Origin: Eunapius fragilis
Lineage: Eukaryota; Porifera; Demospongiae; Spongillida; Spongillidae
DNA: 64,000 nt
Reading direction: 5' to 3'
Assembly (NCBI GenBank): GCA_963681505.1
Contig: OY811983.1
Span: 209,501-273,500 of the forward strand
Position 1 is the stretch's first letter, and every line of letters begins with the position of its first letter. The position numbers were made by a program, and so were the translations under genes. Positions 9,461 to 63,339 of the stretch are shown here, in pieces. The notes beneath the pieces were generated by a model, which was not told where the DNA came from, made no database searches, and was given only the letters and a program-made list of their open reading frames with translations.

Positions 9461-11527
9461 AATCCCACTTTAATTACCACTACCAATCCCACTACCAATC
9501 CCACTACCAATCCCACTACCACTACCACTACCACTACCAATCCCACTACCACTACCACTACCAATCCCACTACCAATCCCACTACCAATCCCACTACCAA
9601 TCCCTCTACCAATCCCACTACCAATCCCACTACCACTACCACTAACAATCCCACTACCAATCCCACTACCAATCCCACCACCAATCCCACTACCAATCCC
9701 ACTACCAATCCCACTACCAATCCCACTACCACTACCAATCCCAATACCAATCCCACTACCAATCCCACTACCACTACCACTACCACTACCAATCCCACTA
9801 CCAATCCCACTACCACTACCACTACCAATCCCACTACCACTACCACTACCATTTCCCCTACCAATCCCACTACCACTAAAATTTCCACTACCAATCCCAC
9901 TACCATTCCCACTACCAATCCCACTACCACTACCACTACCAATCCCACTACCAATCCCACTACCAATCCCACTACCAATCCCACTACCAATCCCACTACC
10001 AATCCCACTACCACTACCAATCCCACTACCAATCCCACTACCAATCCCACTACCACTACCACTACCACTACCAATCCCACTACCAATCCCACTACCAATC
10101 CCACTACCACTACCACTACCAATCCCACTACCAATCCCACTACCAATCCCACTACCAATCCCACTACCACTACCAATCCCACTACCAATCCCACTACCAA
10201 TACCACTACCACTACCACTACCACTACCAATCCCACTACCACTACCACTACCAATTCCCCTAACAATCCCACTACCACTACCACTACCACTACCAATCCC
10301 ACTACCAATCCCACAACCAATCCCACTACCAATCCCACTACCAATCCCACTACCAATCCCGCTACCAATCCCACTACCACTACCAATCCCACTACCAATC
10401 CCACTACCAATCCCACTACCACTACCACTACTACTACCAATCCCACTACCAATCCCACTACCACTACCACTACCAATCCCACTACCAATCCCACTACCAA
10501 TCCCACTACCAATCCCACTACCACTACAATTACCAATCCCACTACCAATCCCACTACCAATCCCACCACCTATCCCACTACCAATCCCACCACCAATCCC
10601 ACTACCAATCCCACTACCAATCCCACTACCAATCCCACTACCACTACCAATCCCAATACCAATCCCACTACCAATCCCACTACAACTACCACTACCACTA
10701 CCAATCCCACTACCAATCCCACTACCACTACCACTACCAATCCCACTACCACTACCACTACCATTTCCCCTACCAATCCCACTACCACTAAAATTTCCAC
10801 TACCAATCCCACTACCATTCCCACTACCAATCCCACTACCACTACCACTACCAATCCCACTACCAATCCCACTACCAATCCCACTACCAATCCCACTACC
10901 AATCCCACTACCAATCCCACTACCACTACCAATCCCACTACCAATCCCACTACCAATCCCACTACCACTACCACTACCACTACCAATCCCACTACCAATC
11001 CCACTACCAATCCCACTACCACTACCACTACCAATCCCACTACCAATCCCACCACCTATCCCACTACCACTACCACTACCAATTCCCCTACCAATCCCAC
11101 TACCACTAAAATTTCCACTACCAATCCGACTACCAATCCCTCTACCACTACCACTACCAATCCCACTACCAATCCCGCTACCACTACCACTACCTCTACC
11201 AATCCCACTACCAATCCCACTACCAATACCACTACCAATCCCACTACCACTACCACTACCACTACCAATCCCACTACCAATCCCACTACCAATCCCACTA
11301 CCACTACCACTACCACTACCACTACCAATCCCACTACCAATCCCACTACCACTACCACTACCACTACCAATCCCACTACCAATCCCACTAACAATCCCAC
11401 TACCAATCCCACTACCACTACCAATCCGACTACCAATCCCACTACCAATTTCACTACCACTACCACTACTACTACCAATCCCACTACCAATCCCACTACC
11501 ACTACCACTACCAATCCCACTACCACT
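9461..11527 (+). repeat. 12-bp/6-bp minisatellite, array A4 (second copy of 2,460-bp unit)
   Basis: This 2,067-bp array matches A3 to about 11,308, then diverges and ends 90 bp (fifteen 6-bp steps) longer. Its distal part, including AATTTCACTACC near 11,447, matches the end of array A13 ahead of block 14. That places the start of the ~20-kb higher-order unit inside this array. Confidence 0.95.
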
Positions 11528-12010
11528 AAGCAATTGGTCACGGCACGCCGAATTGCCCCAAATTGTTACAGATTGATCCTGTGAAAGTGCAGGAATCCGT
11601 CGCAGCGTGCCGAATTGTGCTGAATTTTGGCAGATTGGACCAAAGACAGTGCAGCAATCGGTCGCAGCGCGCCGAATTGTGCTGAATAACATATTGCAGA
11701 TTGATCCTGCGAAAGTGCAGTAATCCGTCTCAGCGCGCCGAATTGCGCCGAATTGTTGCAGATTGATCCCGCCATAGTGAAGCAATCGGTATCAGCGTGT
11801 TGATTTGCCACGAATTGTTGCAGATTGATCCGGCGATAGTGCAGCATTCCGTTGTAGTGCGCAGAATTGTTACAGATTGGTTCCGCGAAAGTGCTGCAAT
11901 CCGTCGCAGCGCGCCGAATTGTGCCAAATTGTTACAGATTGATCCCGCAAAAATGCACTAATCCGTCGCAGCGCGCCGAATTGCGCTGGATTGTTACAGA
12001 TTGATCCCGC
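11528..12010 (+). repeat. 62-mer satellite block 5
   Basis: This 483-bp block opens AAGCAATTGGTCACGGC. It carries rare variants (GAATTTTGGCAG, GCGTGTTGATTTGCC, AATGCACTAATCC) found identically in block 14, 20,847 bp downstream. It is the first block of the large higher-order unit. Confidence 0.95.
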
Positions 12011-12793
12011 AATCCCACTTCAATTACCACTACCAATCCCACTACCAATCCCACTCCCCATCCCACTCCCCATCCCACTACCACTACCACTACCACTACC
12101 AATCCCACTACCAATCCGACCACCAATCCCACTACCAATCCCACTACCACTCCCACTACCAATCCCACTACCACTACCACTACCACTACCAATCCCACTA
12201 CCAATCCCACTACCACTACCACTTACAATCCCACTTCCACTACCACTACCAATTCCTCTACCAATCCCACTACCACTAAAATTTCCACTACCAATCCCAC
12301 TACCAATCCCACTACCAATCCCACTACCACTACCAATCCCACTACCAATCCCACTACCAATCCCACTAACAATCCCACTAACAATCCCACTACCAATCCC
12401 ACTACCACTACCAATCCCACTACCAATCCCACTACCAATCCCACTACCAATCCCACTACCACTACCAATCCCACTACCATTCCCACTACCACTACCACTA
12501 CCACTACCAATCCCACTACCAATCCCAATACCACTACCACTACCAATCCCACTACAGCTACCACTACCAATTCCCCTACCAATCCCACTACCACTACAAT
12601 TTCCACTACCAATGCCACTACTAATCCCACTACCAATCCCACTACCAATCCCACTACCACTACCACTACCACTACCAATCCCACTACCAATCACACTACC
12701 AATCATACTACCAATCCCACTACCACTACCATTCCCACTACCAATCCCAATACCAATCCCACTACCACTACCACTACCAATCCCACTACCACT
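12011..12793 (+). repeat. 12-bp/6-bp minisatellite, array A5
   Basis: This 783-bp array has a distinctive start containing two CCCCATCCCACT variants. It pairs with A14 (771 bp). Near 12,554 it has an unusual CTACAGCTACC. The 3' part from about 12,590 onward is repeated ahead of block 7, so the 4,669-bp duplication extends back into this array. Confidence 0.95.
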
Positions 12794-13152
12794 AAGGAAT
12801 CGGTCTCGGCGCGCCCAATTGCCCCAAATTGTTACAGATTGATCCTTCGAAAGTGCAGGAATTAGTCGCAGCGTGCCGAATTGTGCTAAATTTTTGCAGA
12901 TTGGACCAAAGAAAGTGCAGCAATAGGTCGCAGCGCGCCGAATTGTGCCGAATAACATATTGCAGATTTATCCTGCGAAAGTGCAGCAATCCGTCTCAGC
13001 GCGCCGAATTGTTACAGATTGGTTCCGCGAAAGTGCTGCTATCCGTTGCTGTGCGCCGAATTGCGCCAATTTGTTACAGATTAATCCCGCAAAAGTGCAC
13101 CAATCCGTCGCAGCGCGCCGAACTGCGCTGGATTGTTACAGATTGATCCCGC
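12794..13152 (+). repeat. 62-mer satellite block 6 (shortened)
   Basis: At 359 bp this block is 124 bp, or two monomers, shorter than the standard 483 bp. It opens AAGGAATCGGTCTCGGC. It appears identical to block 7, 4,669 bp downstream. Confidence 0.94.
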
Positions 13153-16100
13153 AATCCCACTTCAATTAGCACTACCATTCCCACTACCAATCCCACTACC
13201 AATCCCACTACCACTACCACTACCACTACCAATCCCACTACCACTACCACTACCAATCCCACTACCAATCCCACTGCCAATCCCACTACCAATCCCACTA
13301 CCAATCCCACTACCTATCCCACTACCACTACCACTACCAATCCCACTACCAATCCCACTACCAATCCCACCACCAATCCCACTACCGATCCCACTACCAA
13401 TCCCACTACCACTACCAATCCCACTACCAATCCCACTACCAATCCCTCTACCACTACCACTACCACTACCAATCCCACTACCAATCCCACTACCAATCCC
13501 ACTACCACTACCACTACCAATCCCACTACCAATCCCACTACCAATCCCACTACCAATCCCACTACCAATCCCACTACCAATCCCACTACCAATCCCACTA
13601 CCACTACCACTACCACTAACAATCCCACTACCACTACCACTACCAATTCCCCTACCAATCCCACTACCACTAAAACTTCCACTACCAATCCCACTACCAA
13701 TCCCACTACCAATCCCACTACCACTACCACAACCAATCCCACTACCAATCCCACTACCAATCCCACTACCAATCCCACTACCAATCCCACTACCACTACC
13801 ACTACCACTACCAATCCCACTACCAATCCCACTACCACTACCACTACCAATCCCACTACCACTACCACTACCAATTCCCCTACCAATCCCACTACCACTA
13901 AAATTTCCACTACCAATGCCACTACCAATCCTACTACCAATCCCACTACCCTTCTCACAACCACTACCACTACCAATACCAATCCCACTACCATTCCCAC
14001 TACCAATCCCACTACCAATCCCACTACCACTACCAATCCCACTACCAATCCCACTACCAATCCCACTACCACTACCACTACTACTACCAATCCCACTACT
14101 ACTACCTCTACCAATCCCACAACCAATCCCACTACCACTACCACTACCACTACCAATCCCACTACCAATCCCACTTCCAATCCCACTACCAATCCCACTA
14201 CCAATCCCACTACCACTACCACTACCAATCCCACAACCAATCCCACTATCAATCCCACCACCAATCCCACTACCACTACCAATCCCACTACCAATCCCAC
14301 TACCACTACCACTACCACTACCACTACCACTACCAATCCCACTAACAATCCCACTACCACTACCACTACCAATCCCACTACCACTACCACTACCAATTCC
14401 CCTAACAATCCCACTACCACTACCACTACCACTACCAATCCCACTACCAATCCCACTACCAATCCCACTACCAATCCCACTACCACTACCACTACCAATC
14501 CCACTACCAATCCCACTACCAATCCCACTACCAATCCCACTACAAATCCCACTACCACTACCACTACCAATCCCACTACCAATCCCACCACCAATCCCCC
14601 TACCAATCCCACTACTAATCCCATTACCAATCCCACTACCACTACCAATCCCACTACCAATCCCACTACCAATCCCACTACCACTACCACTACCACTACC
14701 AATCCCACTACCAATCCCACTACCACTACCACTTACAATCCCACGACCACTACCACTACCAATTCCCCTACCAAACCCACTGCCACTAAAATTTCCTCTA
14801 CCAATCCCACTACCAATCCCACTACCAATCCCACTACCACTACCACTACCAATCCCACTACCAATCCCACTACCAATCCCACTACCAATCCCACTACCAA
14901 TCCCACTACTACTACCAATCCCACGACCAATCCCACTACCAATCCCACTACCACTACCACCACCACTACTAATCGCACTACCAATCCCACTACCAATCCC
15001 ACTACCACTACCACTACCAATCCCACTACCAATCCCACTACCATTACCACTACCAATCCCACTACCACTACCACTACCACTACCACTACCACAACAACCA
15101 CCAATCCCACTACCAATCCCACTACCATTACCACTACCAATCCCACTACCACTACCACTACCAATTCCCCTAACAATCCCACTACCCCTACCACTACCAC
15201 TACCAATCCCACTACCAATCCCACTACCAATACCTCTACCAATCCCACTACCAATCCCACTACCAATTCCCCTACCAATCCCACTACCACTACAATTTCC
15301 ACTACCAATGCCACTACCAATCCCACTACCAATGCCACTACCAATCCCACTACCACTACCACTCCCACTACCAATCCCACTACCAATCCCACTACCAATC
15401 CCACTACCAATCCCACTACCAATCCCACTACCAATCCCACTACCAATCCCACTACCACTACCAATCCCACTACCAATCCCACTACCAATCCCACTACCAC
15501 TACCACATCTACTACCAATTCCACTACCAATCCCACTACCACTACCACTACCTATCCCACTACCAATCCCACTACCACTACCAATCCCACTACCAATCCC
15601 ACTACCAATCCCACTACCACTACCAATCCCACTACCAATCCCTCTACCACTACCACTACCAATCCCACTACCACTACCACTACCAATTCCCCTACCAATC
15701 CCACTACCAATCCCACTACCAATCCCACTACCAATCCCACTACCAATCCCACTACCAATCCCACTACCACTACCACTACCAATCCCACTTCCAATCCCTC
15801 TATCAATCCCACCACCAATCCCACTACCACTACCAATCCCACTACCAATCCTACTACCAATACCACTACCACTACCACTACCACTACCAATCCCACTACC
15901 AATCCCACTACCAATCCCACTACCAATCCCACTACCAATCCCACTACCAATCCCACTACCTCTACCAATCCCACTACCAATCCCACTACCACTATCACTT
16001 CTACTACCAATACCACTACCAATCCCACTACCACTACCACTACCAATCCCACTACCAATCCCACTACCACTACCAATCCCACTACCAATCCCACTACCAA

Positions 16101-17462
16101 TCCCTCTACCACTACCACTACCACTGCCAATCCCACTACCAATCCCACTACCACTACCACTTACAATCCCACTACCACTACCACTTCCAATTCCCCTACC
16201 AATCCCACTACCACTAAAATTTCCACTACCAATCCCACTACCAATCCCACTACCAATCCCACTACCACTACCAATCCCACTACCAATCCCACTACCAATC
16301 CCACTACCACTACCACTACCACTACCAATCCCACTACCAATCCCACTACCACTACCACTATCAATCCCACTACCAGTACCACTACCAATTCCCCTACCAA
16401 TCCCACTACCGCTAAAATTTCCACTACCAATGCCACTACCAATCCTACTACCAATCCCACTACCCTTCCCACTACCACTACCACTACCACTACCAATCCC
16501 ACTACCATTCCCACTACCAATCCCACTACCAATCCCACAACCACTACCAATCCCACTACCAATCCCACTACCGATCCCACTTCCAATCCCACTACCACTA
16601 CCACTACTACTACCAATCCCACTACTACTACCACTACCAATCCCACAACCAATCCCACTACCACTATCACTACCTCTACCAATCCCACTACCAATCCCAC
16701 TACCAATCCCACTACCAATCCCACTACCAATCCCACTACCACTACCACAACCAATCCCACTACCAATCCCACTATCAATCCCACCACCAATCCCACTTCC
16801 ACTACCAATCCCACTACCAATCCCACTACCAATCCCACTACCAATCCCACTAACAATCCCACTACCACTACCACTACCAATCCCACTACCACTACCACTA
16901 CCAATTCCCCTAACAATCCCACTACCACTACCACTACCACTACCAATCCCACTACCAATCCCACTACCAATCCCACTACCAATCCCACTACCACTACCAC
17001 TACCAATCCCACTACCAATCCCACTACCAATCCCACTACAAATCCCACTACCAATCCCACTACCACTACCACTACCAATCCCACTACCAATCCCACTACC
17101 AATCCCACCACCATTCCCACTACCAATCCCACTACTAATCCCATTACCAATCCCTCTACCACTACCAATCCACTACCAATCCCACTACCAATCCCACTAC
17201 CACTACCACTCACAATCCCATGACCACTACCGCTACCAATTCCCCTACCAATCCCACTACCACTACAATTTCCACTACCAATGCCACTACTAATCCCACT
17301 ACCAATCCCACTACCAATCCCACTACCACTACCACTACCACTACCAATCCCACTACCAATCACACTACCAATCATACTACCAATCCCACTACCACTACCA
17401 TTCCCACTACCAATCCCAATACCAATCCCACTACCACTACCACTACCAATCCCACTACCACT
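13153..17462 (+). repeat. 12-bp/6-bp minisatellite, array A6 (first copy of 4,669-bp unit)
   Basis: This is a 4,310-bp array. Near 17,168 a single C is missing (CCAATCCACTACC), a one-base deletion also found in A7 and A15 that marks common descent. A 1,386-codon + strand Pro/Ile/Leu frame runs from 13,133 to 17,293 and changes frame after that deletion. It is regarded as a repeat translation. Confidence 0.96.
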
Positions 17463-17821
17463 AAGGAATCGGTCTCGGCGCGCCCAATTGCCCCAAATTG
17501 TTACAGATTGATCCTTCGAAAGTGCAGGAATTAGTCGCAGCGTGCCGAATTGTGCTAAATTTTTGCAGATTGGACCAAAGAAAGTGCAGCAATAGGTCGC
17601 AGCGCGCCGAATTGTGCCGAATAACATATTGCAGATTTATCCTGCGAAAGTGCAGCAATCCGTCTCAGCGCGCCGAATTGTTACAGATTGGTTCCGCGAA
17701 AGTGCTGCTATCCGTTGCTGTGCGCCGAATTGCGCCAATTTGTTACAGATTAATCCCGCAAAAGTGCACCAATCCGTCGCAGCGCGCCGAACTGCGCTGG
17801 ATTGTTACAGATTGATCCCGC
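17463..17821 (+). repeat. 62-mer satellite block 7 (shortened)
   Basis: This is a 359-bp copy of block 6 with the same opening AAGGAATCGGTC and the same missing monomers. It supports a tandem 4,669-bp duplication covering block plus array. Confidence 0.94.
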
Positions 17822-20800
17822 AATCCCACTTCAATTAGCACTACCATTCCCACTACCAATCCCACTACCAATCCCACTACCACTACCACTACCACTACCA
17901 ATCCCACTACCACTACCACTACCAATCCCACTACCAATCCCACTGCCAATCCCACTACCAATCCCACTACCAATCCCACTACCTATCCCACTACCACTAC
18001 CACTACCAATCCCACTACCAATCCCACTACCAATCCCACCACCAATCCCACTACCGATCCCACTACCAATCCCACTACCACTACCAATCCCACTACCAAT
18101 CCCACTACCAATCCCTCTACCACTACCACTACCACTACCAATCCCACTACCAATCCCACTACCAATCCCACTACCACTACCACTACCAATCCCACTACCA
18201 ATCCCACTACCAATCCCACTACCAATCCCACTACCAATCCCACTACCAATCCCACTACCAATCCCACTACCACTACCACTACCACTAACAATCCCACTAC
18301 CACTACCACTACCAATTCCCCTACCAATCCCACTACCACTAAAACTTCCACTACCAATCCCACTACCAATCCCACTACCAATCCCACTACCACTACCACA
18401 ACCAATCCCACTACCAATCCCACTACCAATCCCACTACCAATCCCACTACCAATCCCACTACCACTACCACTACCACTACCAATCCCACTACCAATCCCA
18501 CTACCACTACCACTACCAATCCCACTACCACTACCACTACCAATTCCCCTACCAATCCCACTACCACTAAAATTTCCACTACCAATGCCACTACCAATCC
18601 TACTACCAATCCCACTACCCTTCTCACAACCACTACCACTACCAATACCAATCCCACTACCATTCCCACTACCAATCCCACTACCAATCCCACTACCACT
18701 ACCAATCCCACTACCAATCCCACTACCAATCCCACTACCACTACCACTACTACTACCAATCCCACTACTACTACCTCTACCAATCCCACAACCAATCCCA
18801 CTACCACTACCACTACCACTACCAATCCCACTACCAATCCCACTTCCAATCCCACTACCAATCCCACTACCAATCCCACTACCACTACCACTACCAATCC
18901 CACAACCAATCCCACTATCAATCCCACCACCAATCCCACTACCACTACCAATCCCACTACCAATCCCACTACCACTACCACTACCACTACCACTACCACT
19001 ACCAATCCCACTAACAATCCCACTACCACTACCACTACCAATCCCACTACCACTACCACTACCAATTCCCCTAACAATCCCACTACCACTACCACTACCA
19101 CTACCAATCCCACTACCAATCCCACTACCAATCCCACTACCAATCCCACTACCACTACCACTACCAATCCCACTACCAATCCCACTACCAATCCCACTAC
19201 CAATCCCACTACAAATCCCACTACCACTACCACTACCAATCCCACTACCAATCCCACCACCAATCCCCCTACCAATCCCACTACTAATCCCATTACCAAT
19301 CCCACTACCACTACCAATCCCACTACCAATCCCACTACCAATCCCACTACCACTACCACTACCACTACCAATCCCACTACCAATCCCACTACCACTACCA
19401 CTTACAATCCCACGACCACTACCACTACCAATTCCCCTACCAAACCCACTGCCACTAAAATTTCCTCTACCAATCCCACTACCAATCCCACTACCAATCC
19501 CACTACCACTACCACTACCAATCCCACTACCAATCCCACTACCAATCCCACTACCAATCCCACTACCAATCCCACTACTACTACCAATCCCACGACCAAT
19601 CCCACTACCAATCCCACTACCACTACCACCACCACTACTAATCGCACTACCAATCCCACTACCAATCCCACTACCACTACCACTACCAATCCCACTACCA
19701 ATCCCACTACCATTACCACTACCAATCCCACTACCACTACCACTACCACTACCACTACCACAACAACCACCAATCCCACTACCAATCCCACTACCATTAC
19801 CACTACCAATCCCACTACCACTACCACTACCAATTCCCCTAACAATCCCACTACCCCTACCACTACCACTACCAATCCCACTACCAATCCCACTACCAAT
19901 ACCTCTACCAATCCCACTACCAATCCCACTACCAATTCCCCTACCAATCCCACTACCACTACAATTTCCACTACCAATGCCACTACCAATCCCACTACCA
20001 ATGCCACTACCAATCCCACTACCACTACCACTCCCACTACCAATCCCACTACCAATCCCACTACCAATCCCACTACCAATCCCACTACCAATCCCACTAC
20101 CAATCCCACTACCAATCCCACTACCACTACCAATCCCACTACCAATCCCACTACCAATCCCACTACCACTACCACATCTACTACCAATTCCACTACCAAT
20201 CCCACTACCACTACCACTACCTATCCCACTACCAATCCCACTACCACTACCAATCCCACTACCAATCCCACTACCAATCCCACTACCACTACCAATCCCA
20301 CTACCAATCCCTCTACCACTACCACTACCAATCCCACTACCACTACCACTACCAATTCCCCTACCAATCCCACTACCAATCCCACTACCAATCCCACTAC
20401 CAATCCCACTACCAATCCCACTACCAATCCCACTACCACTACCACTACCAATCCCACTTCCAATCCCTCTATCAATCCCACCACCAATCCCACTACCACT
20501 ACCAATCCCACTACCAATCCTACTACCAATACCACTACCACTACCACTACCACTACCAATCCCACTACCAATCCCACTACCAATCCCACTACCAATCCCA
20601 CTACCAATCCCACTACCAATCCCACTACCTCTACCAATCCCACTACCAATCCCACTACCACTATCACTTCTACTACCAATACCACTACCAATCCCACTAC
20701 CACTACCACTACCAATCCCACTACCAATCCCACTACCACTACCAATCCCACTACCAATCCCACTACCAATCCCTCTACCACTACCACTACCACTGCCAAT

Positions 20801-22467
20801 CCCACTACCAATCCCACTACCACTACCACTTACAATCCCACTACCACTACCACTTCCAATTCCCCTACCAATCCCACTACCACTAAAATTTCCACTACCA
20901 ATCCCACTACCAATCCCACTACCACTACCAATCCCACTACCAATCCCACTACCAATCCCACTACCACTACCACTACCACTACCAATCCCACTACCAATCC
21001 CACTACCACTACCACTATCAATCCCACTACCAGTACCACTACCAATTCCCCTACCAATCCCACTACCGCTAAAATTTCCACTACCAATGCCACTACCAAT
21101 CCTACTACCAATCCCACTACCCTTCCCACTACCACTACCACTACCACTACCAATCCCACTACCATTCCCACTACCAATCCCACTACCAATCCCACAACCA
21201 CTACCAATCCCACTACCAATCCCACTACCGATCCCACTTCCAATCCCACTACCACTACCACTACTACTACCAATCCCACTACTACTACCACTACCAATCC
21301 CACAACCAATCCCACTACCACTATCACTACCTCTACCAATCCCACTACCAATCCCACTACCAATCCCACTACCAATCCCACTACCAATCCCACTACCACT
21401 ACCACAACCAATCCCACTACCAATCCCACTATCAATCCCACCACCAATCCCACTTCCACTACCAATCCCACTACCAATCCCACTACCAATCCCACTACCA
21501 ATCCCACTAACAATCCCACTACCACTACCACTACCAATCCCACTACCACTACCACTACCAATTCCCCTAACAATCCCACTACCACTACCACTACCACTAC
21601 CAATCCCACTACCAATCCCACTACCAATCCCACTACCAATCCCACTACCACTACCACTACCAATCCCACTACCAATCCCACTACCAATCCCACTACAAAT
21701 CCCACTACCAATCCCACTACCACTACCACTACCAATCCCACTACCAATCCCACTACCAATCCCACCACCATTCCCACTACCAATCCCACTACTAATCCCA
21801 TTACCAATCCCTCTACCACTACCAATCCACTACCAATCCCACTACCAATCCCACTACCACTACCACTCACAATCCCATGACCACTACCGCTACCAATTCC
21901 CCTACCAATCCCACTACCACTAAAATTTCCACTACCAATCCCACTACCAATCCCACTACCAATCCCACTACCACTACCACTACCAATCCCACTACCAATC
22001 CCACTACCAATCCCACTACCAATCCCACTACCAATCCCACTACTACTACCAATCCCACTACCAATCCCACTACCAATCCCACTACCAATCCCACTACCAC
22101 TACCACTACCAATACCAATCGCACTACCAATCACACTACCAATCCCACTACCAATCCCACTACCAATCCCACTACCACTACTAATCCCACTACCAATGCC
22201 ACTACCAATGCCACTACCACTACCACTACCACTACAACTACCAATCCCACTACCAATCCCACTACCACTACCACTACCAATCCCACTACCACTACCACTA
22301 CAAATTCCCCTAACAATCCCACTACCCCTACCACTACCACTACCAATCCCTCTACAAATCCCACTACCAATCCCACTACCAATCCCACTACCAATCCCAC
22401 TACCACTACCACTACTACTACCAATCCCACTACCAATCCCACTACCACTACCAATCCCACTACCACT
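17822..22467 (+). repeat. 12-bp/6-bp minisatellite, array A7 (second copy of 4,669-bp unit)
   Basis: This 4,646-bp array repeats A6 to about 21,910 with small indels of whole words, including loss of one 12-bp word near 20,925. It then continues with different sequence (GGTAACGGC at its far edge). The same one-base deletion seen at 17,168 occurs near 21,827. Confidence 0.96.
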
Positions 22468-22888
22468 AAGCAATTGGTAACGGCACGCCGAATTGCCCCA
22501 AATTGTTACAGATAGATCCTGTGAAAGTGCTAGAATCCGTCGCAGAGTGCCGAATTGTGCTGAATTTTTGCAGATTGGACCAAAGACAGTGCAGCAATCG
22601 GTTGCAGCGCGCCGAATTGTGCCGAATAACATATTGCAGATTGATCCTGCGAAAGTGCAGCAATCCGTCTCAGCGCGCCGAATTGCGCCGAATTGTTGCA
22701 CATTGATCCCGCCATAGTGAAACAATCGGTCTCAGTGCGCCGATTTGCCACGAATTGTTGCAGATTGATCCGTCGATAGTGCAGCATTCCGTTGTAGTGC
22801 GCCGAAATGGTACTGATTGATCCCGCAAAAATGCACCAATTCGTCGCAGCGCGCCGAATTGCGCTGGATTGTTACAGATTGATCCCGC
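22468..22888 (+). repeat. 62-mer satellite block 8 (one monomer short)
   Basis: At 421 bp it is exactly 62 bp shorter than a full block. It carries CTAGAATCC and TGCACATTGATCC variants shared with block 16, 16,944 bp downstream. Confidence 0.94.
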
Positions 22889-37100: not shown

Positions 37101-39411
37101 CTACCAATCCCACTACCAATCCCACTACCACTACCAATCCCACTACCAATCCCACTACCACTACCACTACCAATCCCACTACCACTACCACTACCAATTC
37201 CCTTACCAATCCCACTACCAATTCCACTACCAATCCCACTACCAATCCCACTACCAATCCCACTACCAATCCCACTACCACTACCACTACCAATCCCACT
37301 TCCAATCCCTCTATCAATCCCACCACCAATCCCACTACCACTACCAATCCCACTACCAATCCTACTACCAATACCACTACCACTACCAATCCCACTACCA
37401 ATCCCACTACCAATCCCACTACCAATCCCACTACCAATCCCACTACCAATCCCACTACCAATCCCACTACCTCTACCAATCCCACTACCAATCCCACTAC
37501 CAATCCCACTACCACTATCACTTCTACTACCAATACCACTACCAATCCCACTACCACTACCACTACCAATCCCACTACCAATCCCACTACCACTACCAAT
37601 CCCACTACCAATCCCACTACCAATCCCTCTACCACTACCACTACCACTGCCAATCCCACTACCAATCCCACTACCACTACCACATACAATCCCACTACCA
37701 CTACCACTACCAATTCCCCTACCAATCCCACTACCACTAAAATTTCCACTACCAATCCCACTACCAATCCCACTACCAATCCCACTACCACTACCAATCC
37801 CACTACCAATCCCACTACCAATCCCACTACCACTACCACTACCACTACCACTACCAATCCCACTACCAATCCCACTACCACTACCACTATCAATCCCACT
37901 ACCAGTACCACTACCAATTCCCCTACCAATCCCACTACCACTAAAATTTCCACTACCAATGCCACTACCAATCCTACTACCAATCCCACTACCCTTCCCA
38001 CTACCACTACCACTACCACTACCAATCCCACTACCATTCCCACTACCAATCCCACTACCAATCCCACAACCACTACCAATCCCACTACCAATCCCACTAC
38101 CGATCCCACTTCCAATCCCACTACCACTACCACTACTACTGCCAATCCCACTACTACTACCACTACCAATCCCACAACCAATCCCACTACCACTACCACT
38201 ACCTCTACCAATCCCACTACCAATCCCACTACCAATCCCACTACCAATCCCACTACCATTCCCACTACCACTACCACTACCAATCCCACTACCAATCCCA
38301 CTATCAATCCCACCACCAATCCCACTACCACTACCAATCCCACTACCAATACCACTACCAATCCCACTACCAATCCCACTAACAATCCCACTACCACTAC
38401 CACTACCAATCCCACTACCACTACCACTACCAATTCCCCTAACAATCCCACTACCACTACCACTACCACTACCAATCCCACTTCCAATCCCACTACCAAT
38501 CCCACTACCAATCCCACTACCACTACCACTACCAATCCCACTACCAATCCCACTACCAATCCCACTACAAATCCCACTACCAATCCCACTACCACTACCA
38601 CTACCAATCCCACTACCAATCCCACTACCAATCCCACCACCATTCCCACTACCAATCCCACTACTAATCCCATTACCAATCCCTCTACCACTACCAATCC
38701 ACTACCAATCCCACTACCAATCCCACTACCACTACCACTACCACTACCAATCCCACTACCAATCCCACTACCACTACCACTCACAATCCCATGACCACTA
38801 CCGCTACCAATTCCCCTACCAATCCCACTACCACTAAAATTTCCACTACCAATCCCACTACCAATCCCACTACCAATCCCACTACCACTACCACTACCAA
38901 TCCCACTACCAATCCCACTACCAATCCCACTACCAATCCCACTACCAATCCCACTACTACTACCAATCCCACTACCAATCCCACCACCAATCCCACTACC
39001 ACTACCACTACCAATACCAATCGCACTACCAATCACACTACCAATCCCACTACCAATCCCACTACCAATCCCACTACCACTACCAATCCCACTACCAATG
39101 CCACTACCAATGCCACTACCACTACCACTACCACTACAACTACCAATCCCACTACCAATCCCACTACCACTACCACTACCAATCCCACTACCACTACCAC
39201 TACAAATTCCCCTAACAATCCCACTACCCCTACCACTACCACTACCAATCCCTCTACAAATCCCACTACCAATCCCACTACCAATCCCACTACCAATCCC
39301 ACTACCAATCCCACTACCACTACCAATCCCACTACCAATCCCACTACCACTACCACTACTACTACCAATCCCACTACCAATCCCACTACCACTACCAATC
39401 CCACTACCACT
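34112..39411 (+). repeat. 12-bp/6-bp minisatellite, array A15 (longest)
   Basis: This 5,300-bp array corresponds to A6 and A7 but is rearranged and longer. The one-base deletion CCAATCCACTACC recurs near 38,697. It hosts the longest open frame in the window, 1,581 codons of Pro/Ile/Leu from 34,092 to 38,837, and a 995-codon minus-strand frame. Both result from the 6-base periodicity. Confidence 0.96.
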
Positions 39412-39832
39412 AAGCAATTGGTCACGGCACGCCGAATTGCCCCAAATTGTTACAGATTGATCCTGTGAAAGTGCTAGAATCCGTCGCAGAGTGCCGAATT
39501 GTGCTGAATTTTTGCAGATTGGACCAAAGACAGTGCAGCAATCGGTTGCAGCGCGCCGAATTGTGCCGAATAACATATTGCAGATTGATCCTGCGAAAGT
39601 GCAGCAATCCGTCTCAGCGCGCCGAATTGCGCCGAATTGTTGCACATTGATCCCGCCATAGTGAAACAATCGGTCTCAGTGCGCCGATTTGCCACGAATT
39701 GTTGCAGATTGATCCGTCGATAGTGCAGCATTCCGTTGTAGTGCGCCGAATTGTTACAGATTGATCCCGCAAAAATGCACCAATTCGTCGCAGCGCGCCG
39801 AATTGCGCTGGATTGTTACAGATTGATCCCGC
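39412..39832 (+). repeat. 62-mer satellite block 16 (one monomer short)
   Basis: This 421-bp block is the partner of block 8 and shares CTAGAATCC and GTTGCACATTGATCC. Confidence 0.94.
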
Positions 39833-40411
39833 AATCCCACTTCAATTACCACTACCAATCCCACTACCAATCCCACTTCCCATCCCACTCCCCATCCCAC
39901 TACCACTACCACTACCACTACCAATCCCACTACCAATCCCACCACCAATCCCACTACCAATCCCACTACCAATCCCACTACCAATCCCACTACCACTACC
40001 ACTACCACTACCAATCCCTCTACCAATCCCACTACCGCTACCACTTCCAATCCCACTTCCACTACCACTACCAATTCCTCTACCAATCCCACTACCACTA
40101 AAATTTCCACTACCAATCCCACTACCAATCCCACTACCAATCCCACTACCACTACCACTACCAATCCCACTACCAATCCCACTACCAATTCCCCTACCAA
40201 TCCCACTACCACTACAATTTCCACTACCAATGCCACTACCAATCCCACTACCAATCCCACTACCAATCCCACTACCACTACCACTACCACTACCAATCCC
40301 ACTACCAATCCCACTACCAATCATACTACCAATCCCACTACCACTACCATTCCCACTACCAATCCCAATACCAATCCCACTACCACTACCACTACCAATC
40401 CCACTACCACT
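39833..40411 (+). repeat. 12-bp/6-bp minisatellite, array A16
   Basis: This 579-bp array is the partner of A8 without its one-base deletion. Local differences include CTACCGCTACC near 40,030. Confidence 0.95.
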
Positions 40412-40780
40412 AAGCAATCGGTCTCGGCGCGCCGAATTGCCCCAATTTGTTACAGATTGATCCTTCGAAAGTGCAGCAATTAGTCGTAGCGTGCCGAATT
40501 GTGCTAAATTTTTGCAGATTGGACCAAAGAAAGTGCAGCAATAGGTCGCAGCGCGCCGAATTGTGCCGAATAACACATTGCAGATTGATCCTGCGAAAGT
40601 GCAGCAATCCGTCTCAGCGCGCCGAATTGCGCCGTATTGTTGCAAATTGATCACGCCATAGTGAAGCAATCGGTCTTAGTGCGCCGAATTGCCCCTAATT
40701 GTTGCAGATTGATCCAGCGAAAGTGCACCAATCCGTCGCAGCGCGCCGAATTGCGCTGGATTGTTACAGATTGATCCCGC
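40412..40780 (+). repeat. 62-mer satellite block 17 (shortened)
   Basis: This 369-bp partner of block 9 has AAAGTGCACCAATCC where block 9 has AAAGTGCTCCAATCC. Confidence 0.94.
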
Positions 40781-41653
40781 AATCCCACTTCAATTACCAC
40801 TACCAATCCCACCACCAATCCCACTACCAATCCCACTACCACTACAACTACCACTACCAATCCCACTACCACTACCACTACCAATCCCACTACCAATCCC
40901 ACTACCAATCCCACTACCAATCCCACTACCACTACCACTACCAATCCCACTACCAATCCCACTACCAATCCCACCACCAATCCCACTACCGATCCCACTA
41001 CCAATCCCACTACCACTACCAATCCCACTACCAATCCTACTACCAATCCCACTACCACTACCACTACCAATACCAATCCCACTACCAATCCCACCACCAA
41101 TCCCACTACCGATCCCACTACCAATCCCACTACCACTACCAATCCCACTACCAATCCCACTACCAATCCCACTACCACTACCACTACCAATACCAATCCC
41201 ACTACCAATCCCACTACCACTACCACTACCAATCCCACTACCAATCCCACTACCAATCATACTACCAATCCCACTACCACTACCAATCCCACTACCAATC
41301 CCAATACCAATCCCACTACCACTACCACTTACAATCCCACGACCACTACCACTACCAATTCCCCTACCAATCCCACTACCACTAAAATTTCCACTACCAA
41401 TCCCACTACCAATCCCACTACCAATCCCACTACCACTACCACTACCAATCCCACTACCACTACCACTACCAATTCCCCTAACAATCCCACTACCCCTACC
41501 ACTATCACTACCAATCCCACTACCAATCCCACTACCAATCCCACTACCACTACCAATCCCACTACCAATCCCACAACGTATCCCACTACCACTACCACTA
41601 CTACTACCAATCCCACTACCAATCCCACTACCACTACCAATCCCACTACCACT
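40781..41653 (+). repeat. 12-bp/6-bp minisatellite, array A17
   Basis: This 873-bp array is the partner of A9 and has the same CACTACCGATCCC pair and ACAACGTATCCC variant. It is 12 bp shorter. Confidence 0.95.
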
Positions 41654-42136
41654 AAGCAATTGGTCACGGCACGCCGAATTGCCCCAAATTGTTACAGATT
41701 GATCCTGTGAAAGTGCAGGAATCCGTCGCAGCGTGCCGAATTGTGCTGAATTTTTGCAGATTGGACCATAGACAGTGCAGCAATCGGTCGCAGCGCGCCG
41801 AATTGTGCCGAATAACGTATTGCAGATTGATCCTGCAAAAGTGCAGCAATCCGTCTCAGCGCGCCGAATTGCGCCGAATTGTTGCAGATTGATCCCGCCA
41901 TAGTGAAGCAATCGGTCTCAGCGCGCCGATTTGCCACGAATTGTTGCAGATTGATCCGGCGATAGTGCAGCATTCCGTTGTAGTGCGCCGAATTGTTACA
42001 GATTGGTTCCGCGAAAGTGCTGCAATCCGTCGCAGCGCGCCGAATTGTGCCAAATTGTTACAGATTGATCCCGCAAAAATGCACCAATCCGTCGCAGCGT
42101 GCCGAATTGCGCTGGATTGTTACAGATTGATCCCGC
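41654..42136 (+). repeat. 62-mer satellite block 18
   Basis: This is a full 483-bp partner of block 10, with private changes GACCATAGACAG and GCCGAATAACGTATT. Confidence 0.95.
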
Positions 42137-43699
42137 AATCCCACTACCAATCCCACTACCACTACCACTACCAATCCCACTACCAATCCCACTACCACTA
42201 CCACTACCTCTACCAATCCCACTACCGATCCCACTACCAATCCCACTACCAATCCCACTACCACTACCACTACCACTACCAATCCCACTACCAATCCCAC
42301 TACCAATCCCACTACCAATACCACTACCAATACCACTACCAATCCCACTACTAATCCCACTGCCAATCCCACTACCAATCCCACTACCACTACCAATCCA
42401 TCTACCATTCCCACTACCAATCCCACTACCACTACCACTACCACTACAAATCCCACTACCAATCCCACTACCACTACCACTTACAATCCCACTACCACTA
42501 CCACTACCAATTCCCCTACCAATCCCACTACCACTAAAATTTCCACTACCATTCCCACTACCAATCCCACTACCAATCCCACTACCACTACCACTACCAA
42601 TCCCACTACCAATCCCACTACCAATCCCACTACCAATCCCACTACCAATCCCACTACCAATCCCACTACCACTACCAATCCCACTACCAATCCCACTACC
42701 AATCCCACTACCACTACCACTTCTACTACCAATCCCACTACCAATCCCACTACCACTACCACTACCAATCCCACTACCAATCCCACTACCACTACCAATC
42801 CCACTACCAATCCCACTACCAATCCCACTACCACTACCAATCCCACTACCAATCCCACTACCACTACCACTTCCAATCCCACTACCACTACCACTACCAA
42901 TTCCCCTACCAATCCCACTACCACTACAATTTCCACTACCAATGCCACTACCAATCCCACTACCAATCCCACTACCAATCCCACTACCACTACCACTACC
43001 ACTACCAATCCCACTACCAATCCCACTACCAATCCCACTTCCAATCCCACTACCAATCCCACTACCAATCCCACTACCACTACCAATCCCAATCCCACGA
43101 CCACTACCACTACCAATTCCCCTACCAATCCCACTACCACTAAAATTTCCACTACCAATCCCACTACCAATCCCACTACCAATCCCACTACCACTACCAC
43201 TACCAATCCCACTACCAATCCCACTACCAATCCCACTACCAATCCCACTACCACTACCAATCCCACTACCAATCCCACTACCAATCCCACTACCACTACC
43301 ACTACCACTACCAATCGCACTACCAATCCCACTACCAATCCCACTACCACTACCACTACCACTACCACTACCAATCCCACTACCAATCCCACTACAAATC
43401 CCACTACTAATCCCACTACCACTACCACTACCAATCCCACTACCACTACCACTTCCAATTCCCCTAACAATCCCACTACCCCTACCACTACCACTACCAA
43501 TCCCACTACCAATCCCACTACCAATCCCACTACCAATCCCACTACCAATCCCACTACCAATCCCACTACCAATCCCACTACCAATCCCACTACCACTACC
43601 AATCCCACTACCAATCCCACTACCAATCCCACTACCACTACCACTACTACTACCAATCCCACTACCAATCCCACTACCACTACCAATCCCACTACCACT
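42137..43699 (+). repeat. 12-bp/6-bp minisatellite, array A18
   Basis: This 1,563-bp array is the partner of A10. It lacks the ~60-bp duplicated segment with ACCATTACC words present there. Its end retains CGAATGGCCCC in the following block. Confidence 0.95.
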
Positions 43700-44182
43700 A
43701 AGCAATTGGTCACGGCACGCCGAATGGCCCCAAATTGTTACAGATTGATCCTGTGAAAGTGCAGGAATCCGGCGCAGCGTGCCGAATTGTGCTGAATTTT
43801 TGCAGATTGGACCAAAGACAGTGCAGCAATCGGTCGCAGCGCGCCGAATTGTGCCGAAAAACATATTGCAGATTGATCCTGCGAAAGTGCAGCAATCCGT
43901 CTCAGCGCGCCGAATTGCACCGAAATGTTGCAGATTGATCCCGCCATAGTGAAACAATCGGTCTCAGTGCGCCGATTTTCCACGAATTGTTGCAGATTGA
44001 TCCTGCGACAGTGCAGCATTCCGTTGTAGTGCGCCAAATTGTTACAGATTGGTTCCGCGAAAGTGCTGCAATCCGTCGCAGCGCGCCGAATTGTGCCAAA
44101 TTGTTACAGATTGATCCCGCAAAAATGCACCAATCCGTCGCAGCGCGCCGAATTGCGCTGGATTGTTACAGATTGATCCCGC
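43700..44182 (+). repeat. 62-mer satellite block 19
   Basis: This is a full 483-bp partner of block 11. It retains the GGTTCCGCGAAAGTGCTGC monomer that block 11 has lost. Confidence 0.95.
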
Positions 44183-45529
44183 AATCCCACTTCAATTACC
44201 ACTACCAATCCCACTACCAATCCCACTCCCCATCCCACTCCCCATCCCACTACCACTACCACTACCACTACCAATCCCACTACCAATCCCACCACCAATC
44301 CCACTACCAATCCCACTACCAATCCCACTACCAATCCCACTACCACTACCACTACCACTACCAATCCCACTACCAATCCCACTACCACTACCACTTCCAA
44401 TCCCACTTCCACTACCACTACCAATTCCTCTACCAATCCCACTACCACTAAAATTTCCACTACCAATCCCACTACCAATCCCACAACCAATCCCACTACC
44501 ACTACCACTACCACTACCAATCCCACTACCACTACCACTACCAATCCCACTACCAATCCCACTACCAATCCCACTACCAATCCCACTACCAATCCCACTA
44601 CCACTAACACTACCAATCCCACTACAAATCCCACTACCAATCCCACCACCAATCCCACTACCAATCCCACTACCAATCCCACTACCAATCCCACTTCCAC
44701 TACCAAGCCCACTACAAATCCCACTACCAATCCCACTACCACTACCACTACCACTACCTATCCCACTTCCAATCCCACTACCACTACCACTTACAATCCC
44801 ACGACCACTACCACTACCAATTCCCCTACCAATCCCACTACCACTAAAATTTCCACTACCAATCCCACTACCAATCCCACTACCAATCCCACTACCACTA
44901 CCACTACCAATCCCACTACCAATCCCACTACCAATCCCTCTACCAATCCCACTACCAATCCCACTACCAATCCGACTACCACTACCAATCCCACTACCAA
45001 TCCCACTACCAATCCCACTACCACTACCACTACCACTACCAATCCCACTACCAATCCCACTACCAATCCCACTACCACTACCACTACCAATCCCACTACC
45101 AATCCCACTACCAATCCCACTACCAATCCCACTACCACTACCAATCCCACTACCAATCCCACTACCAATACCACTACCACTACCACTACCACTACCAATC
45201 CCACTACCAATTCCACTACCACTACCACTACCAATCCCACTACCACTACCACTACCAATTCCCCTAACAATCCCACTACCCCTACCACTACCACTACCAA
45301 TCCCACTACCAATCCCACTACCAATCCCACTACCAATCCCACTCCCAATCCCACTACCAATCCCACTACCAATCCCACTACCAATCCCACTACCAATCCC
45401 ACTACCACTACCAATCCCACTACCAATCCCACTACCACTACCAATCCCACTACCAATCCCACTACCATTACCTCTACTACTACCAATCCCACTACCAATC
45501 CCACTACCACTACCAATCCCACTACCACT
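44183..45529 (+). repeat. 12-bp/6-bp minisatellite, array A19
   Basis: This 1,347-bp array is the partner of A11. A segment present twice in A11 around AATTCCCCTAACAATCCC (near 28,305 and 28,540) is present once here (near 45,260), which explains most of the 150-bp difference. Confidence 0.94.
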
Positions 45530-46012
45530 AAGCAATTGGTCACGGCACGCCGAATTGCCCCAATTTGTTACAGATTGATCCTGTGAAAGTGCAGGAATCC
45601 GTCGCAGCGTGCCGAATTGTGCTGAATTTTTGCAGATTGGACCAAAGACAGAGCAGCAATCGGTCGCAGCGCGCCGAATTGTGCCGAATAACATATTGCA
45701 GATTGATCCTGCGAAAGTGCAGCAATCCGTCTCAGCGCGCCGAATTGCGCCGAATTGTTGCAGATTGAACCCGCCATAGTGAAGCAATCGTTCTCAGCGC
45801 GCCGATTTGCCACGAATTGTTGCAGATTGATCCGGCAATAGTGCAGCATTCCGTTGTAGTGCGCCGAATTGTTACAGATTGGTTCCGAGAAAGTGCTGCA
45901 ATCCGTCGCAGCGCGCCGAATTGTGTCAAGTTGTTACAGATTGATCCCGCAAAAATGCACCAATCCGTCGCAGCGCGCCGAATTGCGCTGGATTGTTACA
46001 GATTGATCCCGC
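45530..46012 (+). repeat. 62-mer satellite block 20
   Basis: This is a full 483-bp partner of block 12, sharing GCAATCGTTCTC and TGTGTCAAGTTG. It has private changes such as GACAGAGCAGC and TTGAACCCGCC. Confidence 0.95.
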
Positions 46013-47671
46013 AATCCCACTACCAATCCCACTACCACTACCACTACCAATCCCACTACCAATCCCACTACCACTACCACTACCTCTACCAATCCCACTA
46101 CCAATCCCACTACCAATCCCACTACCAATCCCACTCCCCATCCCACTACCACTACCACTACCAATCCCACTACCAATCCCACCACCAATCCCACTACCAA
46201 TCCCACTACCAATCCCACTACCAATCCCACTACCACTACCACTACCACTACCAATCCCACTACCAATCCCACTACCACTACCACTTAGAATCCCACTTCC
46301 ACTACCACCACCAATTCCTCTACCAATCCCACTACCACTAAAATTTCCACTACCAATCCCACTACCAATCCCACTACCAATCCCACTACCACTACCACTA
46401 CCAATCCCACTACCAATCCCACTACCAATCCCACTACCAATCCCACTACCACTACCAATCCCACTACCACTACCAATCCCACTACCAATCCCACTACCAT
46501 TACCACTACCACTACCAATCCCACTGCCAATCCCACAACCACTACCACTACCAATCCCACTACCACTACCACTACCACTACCAATTCCCCTACCAATCGC
46601 ACTACCACTACAATTTCCACTACCAATGCCACTACCAATCCCACTACCAATCCCACTACCAATCCCACTACCAATCCCACTACCAATCCCACTACCACTA
46701 CCAATCCCACTACCAATCCCACTACCACTACCACTACCACTACCAATCCCACTACCAATCCCACTACCAATCCCACCACCACTACCACTACCAATCCCAC
46801 TACCAATCCCACTACCAATCCCACCACCAATCCCACTACCAATCCCACTACCAATCCCACTACCAATCCCACTACCACTACCAATCCCACTACCAATCCC
46901 ACTACCAATCCCACTACCACTACCACTACCACTACCAATCCCACTACCAATCCCACTACCAATACCACTTACAATCCCACTACCACTACCACTACCAATT
47001 CCCCTACCAATCCCACTACCACTAAAATTTCCACTACCAATCCCACTACCAATCCCACTACCAATCCCACAACCACTACCACTACCAATCCCACTACCAA
47101 TCCCACTACCAATCCCACTACCAATCCCACTACCAATCCCACTACCACTACCAATCCCACTACCAATCCCACTACCAATCCCACTACCATTACCACTACC
47201 ACTACCAATCCCACTACCAATCCCACTACCTATCCCACTACCACTACCACTACCAATCCCACTACTAATCCCACTACCAATCCCACTACCAATCCCACTA
47301 CCAATCCCACTACCACTACCAATCCCACTACCAATCCCACTACCAATACCACTACCATTACCACTACCACTACCAATCCCACTACCAATCCCACTACCAC
47401 TACCACTACCAATCCCACTACCACTACCACTACCAATTCCCCTAACAATCCCACTACCACTACCACTACCACTACCAATCCCACTACCAATCCCACTACC
47501 AATCCCACTACCAATGCCACTACCAATCCCGCTACCAATCCCACTACCAATCCCACTACCACTACCAATCCCACTACCAATCCCACTACCAATCCCACTA
47601 CCACTACCACTACTACTACCAATACCACTACCAATCCCAATGCCACTACCACTACCAATCCCACTACGACT
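46013..47671 (+). repeat. 12-bp/6-bp minisatellite, array A20
   Basis: This 1,659-bp array is the partner of A12 and ends with the same CACTACGACTAAAC edge. It contains CTTAGAATCCC near 46,284, where A12 has CTTACAATCCC; this is one of the few G bases in the array. Confidence 0.95.
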
Positions 47672-47916
47672 AAACAATTGGTCACGGCACGCCGAATTGC
47701 CTTAAATTGTTACAGATTGATCCTGTGAAAGTGCAGGAATCCGTCGCAGCGTGCCGAATTGTGCTGAATTTTTGCAGATTGGACCAAAGACAGTGCAGCA
47801 ATCGGTCGCAGCGCGCCGAATTGTGCCGAATAACATATTGCAGTTTAATCCTGCGAAAGTGCAGCAATCCGTCTCAGCGCGCCGAATTGCGCTGGATTGT
47901 TACAGATTGATCCCGC
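47672..47916 (+). repeat. 62-mer satellite block 21 (shortened)
   Basis: This 245-bp block opens AAACAATTGG and is the partner of block 13, keeping about two more monomers. Confidence 0.94.
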
Positions 47917-48960
47917 AATCCCACTTCAATTACCACTACCAATCCCACTACCAATCCCACTACCAATCCCACTACCACTACCACTACCACTACCAATCCC
48001 ACTACCACTACCACTACCAATCCCACTACCAATCCCACTACCAATCCTACTACCAATCCCACTACCAATACCACTACCAATCCCACTACCAATCCCACTA
48101 CCAATCCCACTACCACTACCAATCCCACTACCAATCCCACTACCAATCCCACCACCAATCCCACTACCAATCCCACTACCAATCCCACTACCAATCCCAC
48201 TACCACTACCAATCCAACTACCATTCCCACTACCAATCCCACTACCACTACCAATGCCACTACCAATCCCACTACCAATCCCACTACCAATCCCACTACC
48301 ACTACCACTACCACTACCAATCCCACTACCAATCCCACTACCAATCCCACTACCAATCCCACTACCAATCCCACTACCAATCCCACTACCACTACCAATC
48401 CCACTACCAATCCCACTACCAATCCCACTACCACTACCACTTCTACTACCAATCCCACTACCAATCCCACTACCACTACCACTACCAATCCCACTACCAA
48501 CTCCAGTACCACTACCAATCCCACTACCAATCCCACTACCAATCCCACTACCACTACCAATCCCACTACCAATCCCACTACCACTACCACTACCAATCCC
48601 ACTACCACTACCACTACCAATTCCCCTACCAATCCCACTACCACTACAATTTCCACTACCAATGCCACTACCAATCCCACTACCAATCCCACTACCAATC
48701 CCACTACCACTACCACTACCACTACCAATCCCACTACCAATCCCACTACCTATCCCACTACCAATCCCACTACCAATCCCACTACCAATCCCACTACCAC
48801 TACCAATCCCACTACCAATCCCACTACCAATCCCACTACCACTACCACTTCTACTACCAATCCCACTACCAATCCCACTACCACTACCACTACCAATCCC
48901 ACTACCAATCCCACTACCACTACCACTACCAATCCCACTACCAATCCCACTACCAACTAC
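47917..48960 (+). repeat. 12-bp/6-bp minisatellite, array A21 (terminal)
   Basis: This 1,044-bp array is the last of the main satellite domain and matches the first part of A13. It includes an otherwise rare CCAACTCCAGTACC near 48,500. It stops abruptly at CCAACTACGATTTGCC, mid-monomer of the following 62-mer block, rather than at the usual AAGCAATTGG edge. Confidence 0.94.
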
Positions 48961-54059: not shown

Positions 54060-54093
54060 CTTTCTTTATTTTTTTTCATACCCATTTTATTAT

Positions 54094-63338: not shown

Positions 63339-63339
63339 G

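What the first reader, a model, noticed from the sequence alone, without database searches (positions are those of the whole stretch)
11300..48960. Two ordered copies of a 17-20 kb higher-order repeat made from two unrelated satellites
Blocks 5, (6,7), 8, 9, 10, 11, 12, 13 correspond one-to-one with blocks 14, 15, 16, 17, 18, 19, 20, 21 by private variants. Offsets are 20,847 for 5/14, then 16,944, 16,945, 16,933, 16,873, 16,785 and 16,791 for 8/16 through 13/21. The arrays between them pair as well. A unit this long, combining a CpG-rich 62-mer and a G-free 12-mer, resembles centromere-type higher-order repeat organisation, although its location is unknown.
Basis: seen in the sequence. Interest (0 to 1): 0.8.

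Follow-up and report, generated by a model that had tools for sequence, protein, structure and literature searches.

The report
Tandem duplication in sponge subterminal satellite
Near one end of a freshwater sponge chromosome, a long stretch of repetitive DNA built from two kinds of short repeat has been copied once in tandem; the copying looks real, but it sits near a chromosome end rather than at a demonstrated centromere and is an ordinary way for such DNA to grow.

Summary
Six control alignments (other array stretches, chunk-shuffled B) reach 94.4-95.3% in 76-112 blocks. A is longer mainly through a later 4,669-bp duplication inside it.

The centromere-type reading is not supported. The window is C13:209,501-273,500 of a genome whose sizes match Eunapius fragilis odEunFrag1.1; C13 begins with a telomere. 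The satellites recur on many chromosomes, mostly near ends, and at both ends of three. Only two unequal copies were seen, among duplications of about 2.5, 4.7, 35 and 80 kb. C19 and C22 have repeats of other sizes, about 15.9 and 8 kb.

Best reading: a subterminal composite satellite growing by stochastic tandem segmental duplication. It works like a higher-order repeat but lacks a regular multi-copy period. Boldest open reading: convergence on the cap-with-spacer architecture of ape subterminal heterochromatin.

The parts
11299..31589 (+). Copy A of the tandem segmental duplication (about 20.3 kb): nine 62-mer cassettes in hexamer arrays
32146..48508 (+). Copy B (about 16.4 kb), 99.1% identical to A over 15.8 kb aligned
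31590..32145 (+). Junction stretch between A and B, hexamer array only, not cleanly assignable to either copy
12501..17169 (+).
   Evidence: 1,675, 1,151 and 470-bp segments 100% identical at offset 4,669; a 535-bp segment 100% identical at 4,657
17170..21928 (+).
6483..8942 (+). First member of a 2,460-bp tandem duplication just left of copy A
   Evidence: 700 and 482-bp segments 100% identical
8943..11421 (+). Second member of the 2,460-bp duplication; its end overlaps the start of copy A
1..48956 (+). Hexamer satellite domain (CCACTA/CCAATC, C-rich strand on +) punctuated by 62-mer cassettes
   Evidence: (TRF)
11518..12018 (+).
   Evidence: reciprocal best hit, identity 1.0
32365..32865 (+).
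22458..22896 (+).
   Evidence: reciprocal best hit, 0.984
23455..23843 (+).
   Evidence: reciprocal best hit, 0.997
24711..25211 (+).
   Evidence: reciprocal best hit, 0.984
26817..27255 (+).
   Evidence: identity 0.993, not reciprocal best by score
28731..29235 (+).
   Evidence: reciprocal best hit, 0.992
30880..31010 (+).
   Evidence: below the size threshold

Best explanation
This is a subterminal composite satellite domain of a freshwater sponge chromosome. Nearly G-free hexamer arrays are punctuated by cassettes, mostly 0.4-0.5 kb, of a CpG-rich 62-mer, and the domain grows and turns over by out-of-register exchange. A stretch of roughly 16-17 kb was duplicated once in tandem to give A and B. 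The copies then diverged by about 0.9% and by whole-repeat-unit gains and losses. Copy A later gained an internal 4.7-kb tandem duplication. Shown: the two copies, their order, identity, left edge and unit-sized indels, the nested 4.7-kb duplication, the subterminal place, and duplications of other sizes on two other chromosomes. Inferred: that unequal sister-chromatid or homologous exchange (or break-induced replication) made them, and that the domain's role, if any, is that of subterminal heterochromatin, with no separate role for the A/B unit.
For: Collinear A/B alignment at 99.1% against a 94-95% background. 21 of 26 indels are multiples of 6 bp; of the other five, three (62, 124, 128 bp) lie in cassettes and are near one or two 62-mers, one is 1 bp, and one (2,071 bp) is part of the extra 4.7-kb copy. 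The 4,669-bp and 2,460-bp duplications have segments that are 100% identical, so they are younger than A/B or recently homogenised. Cassettes share flanking hexamer context in a few subtypes, as expected if they spread by segmental duplication (read by eye). Of 100 listed of 116 hits of a 62-mer variant, 58 lie within 0.35 Mb and 88 within 1 Mb of a contig end (7.4% and 21% of the genome), on 14 ends of 12 chromosomes; hits are clustered, not independent. C13 starts with CCCTAA and ends with TTAGGG repeats. C22 has a 7,990-bp repeat at 97.5% identity over 4,013 bp and C19 a 15.87-kb repeat at 100% in the listed segments. C13 (190.0-313.5 kb) and C19 (50 kb) share no near-exact segment of 250 bp or more; with looser seeds the longest matches to eight other loci are cassette-sized, up to 408 bp at 94-99%.
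Against: The copies cannot be tied to a crossover: the right edge and the 31.6-32.1 kb junction are hexamer sequence in which no breakpoint can be read. Some arrays lie well inside chromosomes (C2 at 16.0 Mb is 1.6 Mb from the end; C9 at 1.92 Mb; hexamers at C1 6.3 Mb and C2 6.3 Mb). The satellites are not terminal on C13: eight 10-kb pieces sampled between the telomere and 110 kb hold no more than single chance marker hits, and two C13 pieces contain withheld N. Strand orientation is not uniform: C9 and C22 disagree wholly, C4 mostly, and C2, C7 (left), C10, C13 and C16 in part. Cassette-sized matches of up to 98.8% to C22 and a module copy on C22 reported at 100% show that privacy between chromosomes is not complete.
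Confidence: 0.8

Rival explanations
1. The two copies are an assembly artefact: the two alleles of one locus, about 1% apart, laid end to end.
For: 99.1% identity could be allelic divergence (my judgement; heterozygosity was not measured). Manual curation, which removed 8 haplotypic duplications among other changes, shortened the draft by 47.5%; mean HiFi read length (184.53 Gb / 18.74 million, about 9.8 kb) is shorter than the unit. On C19 one of three copies is separated from the next by 200 N, which I take to be a scaffold gap.
Against: No N in the window or in C13:190,001-313,500, so A and B lie in one gapless stretch. The left edge falls inside a hexamer array, and copy A alone carries the 4.7-kb duplication. 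Assembly QV is 60.4, and a difference about every 110 bases should let HiFi reads tell A from B. False duplications of this kind usually sit at contig joins (recalled, not tested).
Confidence: 0.1
2. Subterminal centromere: the domain is the centromere of an acrocentric or telocentric chromosome and A/B is the start of a true centromeric higher-order repeat.
For: Long satellite domain with block-wise homogenisation; largely chromosome-private arrays; the genome note does not mention centromeres (no occurrence of 'centromer').
Against: The same satellites lie at both ends of C3, C7 and C15. Eight of the 23 chromosomes (C5, C8, C11, C12, C17, C18, C20, C23) show no satellite hit in the pattern listings, though three of those listings are truncated and all are exact-match. 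Only two unequal copies were seen. The strand of 89 of 100 listed 62-mer hits follows the nearer chromosome end.
Confidence: 0.08
3. The arrays encode a giant repetitive (mucin-like) protein and the cassettes are linker exons.
For: Open frames of up to 1,597 aa in the arrays.
Against: No frame on either strand is open through any of 20 cassettes tested; long open frames overlap on both strands, as expected for a hexamer that yields no stop codon; cassettes differ by 62 bp, which is not a multiple of three.
Confidence: 0.01

Closest known systems
Alpha-satellite higher-order repeats of primate centromeres
   Same: A block of several diverged units amplified together, with copies much more alike than neighbouring units, and mostly chromosome-specific (PMC8122249, passages seen).
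   Different: Two unequal copies instead of a regular multi-copy array; two unrelated satellites in one unit; subterminal; units of 16-20 kb; no CENP-A or CENP-B evidence.
Subterminal heterochromatic caps of African great apes (pCht/StSat arrays with segmental-duplication spacers)
   Same: Short-unit satellite arrays near chromosome ends, irregularly interrupted by another sequence class, with a higher-order organisation (PMC12758386, abstract with start of introduction and one Results section read); a subterminal module with a copy reported at 100% on another chromosome.
   Different: Spacers here are blocks of a 62-mer, mostly 0.4-0.5 kb, not 32-34 kb segments of euchromatic origin; methylation unknown; the C13 domain spans roughly 0.2 Mb and lies inside non-satellite distal sequence.
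Satellite turnover by unequal crossing over (Smith model)
   Same: Nested tandem duplications of arbitrary length with unit-sized indels (model as described in PMC8122249, passages seen).
   Different: Nothing found that would set it apart; the exchange itself was not observed.

Membership tests
Higher-order repeat (HOR) | Block of several units amplified together, between-copy identity well above within-array identity | tested here: met
   99.1% between A and B; 94.4-95.3% in six control alignments; cassette-to-cassette median 93.8%
Higher-order repeat (HOR) | Regular tandem array with many copies of one period | tested here: not met
   Two copies of about 20.3 and 16.4 kb amid duplications of other sizes; no third copy in the 90 longest of 244 segments printed for C13:190.0-313.5 kb. 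C19 has three copies spaced 14,962 and 15,870 bp, with 200 N between the first and second
Centromeric satellite | One primary locus per chromosome, not near both ends | tested here: not met
   Present at both ends of C3, C7 and C15; the right end of C15 by a single listed hit
Centromeric satellite | CENP-A chromatin | not testable with these tools
   No chromatin data
Subterminal or subtelomeric satellite | Concentrated near chromosome ends on several chromosomes | tested here: met
   58 of 100 listed (of 116) 62-mer hits within 0.35 Mb of an end, 14 ends on 12 contigs; hits are clustered, not independent
Subterminal or subtelomeric satellite | Assembled telomere on the same chromosome end | tested here: met
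   C13 starts with (CCCTAA)n. Of the 23 chromosome starts seen, only C8 and C13 begin in telomere repeats, so for most other ends this is untested
Subterminal or subtelomeric satellite | Uniform orientation relative to the telomere | tested here: inconclusive
   62-mer 89 of 100 listed, hexamer variant 42 of 52 consistent; C9 and C22 disagree wholly, C4 mostly, C2, C7 (left), C10, C13 and C16 in part
Ape-type subterminal cap with spacers | Satellite arrays irregularly interrupted by spacers | tested here: met
   20 distances of 558-5,281 bp between the 21 detected blocks (one of these distances contains the undetected short block 13)
Ape-type subterminal cap with spacers | Spacers are long segmental duplications of euchromatic origin | tested here: not met
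   Cassettes are blocks of tandem 62-mers, 20 of 21 detected being 0.27-0.51 kb; the last, 0.75 kb, is the head-to-head junction at 49 kb
Ape-type subterminal cap with spacers | Spacers hypomethylated | not testable with these tools
   Only an indirect hint: CpG observed/expected 1.25-1.37 in eight cassettes of copy A, 0.72 at 57.1-61.0 kb, 0.11 in the palindromic satellite

The most novel reading that the evidence does not exclude
A sponge has independently evolved subterminal caps with the same architecture as those of great apes. A short-unit satellite is punctuated by CpG-rich cassettes that keep their CpGs because they are unmethylated, and these cassettes seed ectopic and out-of-register exchange. 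That exchange produces the nested higher-order duplications seen here and the near-identical module on a non-homologous chromosome.
Probability: 0.25. Interest if true: 0.55.

Novelty: new member of a known kind. Interest (0 to 1): 0.33.

Why it matters
Four term searches of an open-access library listed no paper on satellite or subtelomere structure in sponges; the hits were seen as listings only, apart from the genome note. The window therefore gives a base-level look at a subterminal satellite domain in an early-branching animal: composite arrays, relatively ordered nested duplications and largely chromosome-private structure. It offers a testable comparison with ape caps and with models of satellite turnover. 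It does not identify a sponge centromere.

Tried and rejected
Centromere-type HOR: rejected as the leading reading because of place and distribution. Coding arrays: rejected. Cassettes as independently inserted mobile elements: not favoured, since cassettes share hexamer flanks that fall into subtypes as duplicated segments would (by eye); no target-site test was made. Rfam at gathering thresholds: no match in the window. Plasmid collection search of 57.1-63.3 kb: no match, as expected for an animal. Orientation of the 61.1-63.3 kb module: 42 of 86, uninformative because the module contains its own inverted repeat. A search for a hexamer 34-mer present in all four sampled arrays at set low counts found none; a looser filter was used instead. 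G-quadruplex-type runs are frequent on the G-rich strand (18 overlapping three-G matches, 1,443 non-overlapping two-G matches), but no shuffle control was run, so nothing is built on it. One 30-aa piece at 60,079-60,168 that looked to me like a glycoside hydrolase had no Pfam match. No alternate haplotype, reads, methylation data or other sponge genome was examined.
Full report
WHERE IT IS. The window is C13:209,501-273,500 of a genome of 218,937,333 bases in 24 contigs. The identification rests on these sizes. C13 begins with (CCCTAA)n and ends with (TTAGGG)n, so the window lies 210-273 kb from an assembled telomere.

WHAT IS THERE. Positions 1-48,956 are a satellite domain made of a hexamer family (CCACTA, CCAATC and variants; nearly G-free on the + strand). 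It is interrupted by cassettes, mostly 0.38-0.5 kb, of a CpG-rich 62-mer; 21 blocks pass my size filter, the last being the head-to-head junction at 49 kb. Sampled pieces place satellites on C13 from 120-130 kb (palindromic family) and 160-170 kb (hexamer) to about 345 kb; the 300-base samples at 360 and 400 kb hold no hexamer marker.

THE DUPLICATION. With trimmed ends the count is 144 mismatches in 15,817 columns, at the same rate in cassettes (30 of 3,287) and arrays (114 of 12,530). 21 of 26 indels are multiples of 6 bp; three of the other five are 62, 124 and 128 bp, within cassettes. Six control alignments that should not be homologous give 94.4-95.3% in 76-112 blocks; reversed B gives 9 aligned columns. 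The left edge is sharp at 11,299/32,146; the right edge fades near 31,589/48,508. Five of eight cassette correspondences are reciprocal best hits; two others are not, by score, because partners differ in length, and one block was below my filter.

ORDER OF EVENTS. Copy A contains a 4,669-bp tandem duplication whose printed segments are 100% identical, and both members are equally distant from B where compared (for example 98.49% each over 464 bp). It is therefore younger than A/B, or was recently homogenised, and explains most of A's extra length. A 2,460-bp duplication left of A also has 100% identical segments (700 and 482 bp). On a larger scale, C13:190.0-193.0 kb pairs with 270.3-273.3 kb at 99.4-99.8%, and 48.9-55.3 kb of the window pairs with about 85-90 kb (window scale, beyond its end), mostly at 98.7-99.7%, with weaker segments at 92.4% and 97.7%. 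In the 123.5 kb examined, 43% of positions fall in direct repeats of at least 400 bp and 97% identity.

ELSEWHERE IN THE GENOME. The 62-mer pattern has 385 exact hits, of which 100 were listed, and a rarer variant has 116, of which 100 were listed; the second listing stops within C21, so later contigs are under-represented. Of those 100, 58 lie within 0.35 Mb of a contig end and 88 within 1 Mb; 89 have the strand expected if the window's orientation, with its C-rich strand running like CCCTAA, is kept relative to the nearer end. A hexamer variant gives 42 of 52. C9 and C22 disagree wholly, C4 mostly, C2, C7 (left), C10, C13 and C16 in part, and C2 has hexamer arrays in both orientations. C3, C7 and C15 carry the satellites at both ends. 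C22 has a 7,990-bp tandem repeat at 97.5% over 4,013 bp. C19 has three copies at spacings 14,962 and 15,870 that are 100% identical in the segments printed at those spacings; 200 N lie between the first and second, so its copy number is uncertain. C13 and C19 share no near-exact segment of 250 bp or more. With looser seeds, seven of eight loci from C22, C19 and C2 match C13 only over cassette-sized pieces (up to 408 bp, 94-99%), and the C2 locus not at all. Higher-order structure is thus largely private to each array. A 2.2-kb module next to the array (61.1-63.34 kb) has 86 matches on 14 contigs, a lower bound that includes the window's own copy and inverted-arm matches; 66 lie within 0.35 Mb of an end, and a copy on C22 is reported at 100%.

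INTERPRETATION. The sequence shows a block of several satellite units copied in tandem and then drifting by point changes and unit-sized gains and losses, with further duplications of unrelated size on top. That is what repeated out-of-register exchange produces in unconstrained arrays; the model as summarised in PMC8122249 was seen in passages. It works like the birth of a higher-order repeat, but with two unequal copies it does not meet the regular multi-copy criterion. Place and distribution argue for a subterminal rather than a centromeric satellite; chromatin data would be needed to close the question. An allelic assembly artefact is the main technical rival: it is disfavoured by the gapless stretch and the copy-specific later duplication, but reads were not available.

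COMPARISON. The nearest architecture I know of is the ape subterminal cap: 32-bp satellite arrays irregularly interrupted by spacers that are pockets of lower methylation, with virtually identical caps on non-homologous chromosomes (PMC12758386, abstract with start of introduction and one Results section read). The sponge domain shares the array-plus-spacer layout and a module found on several chromosomes. Its spacers are short 62-mer cassettes, and methylation is unknown. CpG observed/expected is 1.25-1.37 in eight cassettes, 0.72 at 57.1-61.0 kb and 0.11 in the neighbouring palindromic satellite, which makes the methylation prediction worth testing. Literature searches for sponge satellites or subtelomeres listed no paper on the subject; the library holds open-access papers only.

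Noticed in passing
49,646-55,863: A third satellite with a 32-34-bp unit built on the palindrome TGACTCCTGCAGGAGTCA; CpG observed/expected only 0.11 at 49.7-53.7 kb; much of it repeated about 35 kb further along C13.
   Followed up: partly
61,100-63,340: Subtelomeric module with internal inverted arms; 86 matches on 14 contigs, 66 within 0.35 Mb of an end; C22 copy reported at 100% identity.
   Followed up: partly
48,953-49,640: Head-to-head 62-mer blocks (forward then reverse) where the hexamer domain stops.
   Followed up: no
56,280-56,853: 285-bp tandem pair, 99% alike, in reverse-oriented hexamer and 62-mer.
   Followed up: no
L053-L057 (C19:5,226,001-5,276,000): 15.87-kb tandem unit, copies 100% identical in the segments printed; 200 N at 5,239,300 suggest the assembly may miscount copies.
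   Followed up: partly
C13:303,777-309,802 (L027, L028): 5,068-bp tandem repeat of mostly reverse-oriented hexamer, with a 2,721-bp segment 100% identical.
   Followed up: no
L048, L009, L035, L050: By eye, the C21 start matches sequence about 10 kb into C13, and the C7 and C23 starts share sequence: further subtelomeric duplications.
   Followed up: no
C3:10,802,244-10,802,357: Interstitial perfect CCCTAA run of over 100 bp inside the chromosome; possible old fusion or scaffold error.
   Followed up: no
59,400-60,780: Gene-like fragments; to my eye (recalled, no database support) resembling a glycoside hydrolase family 3 protein, but a 30-aa piece had no Pfam match.
   Followed up: partly
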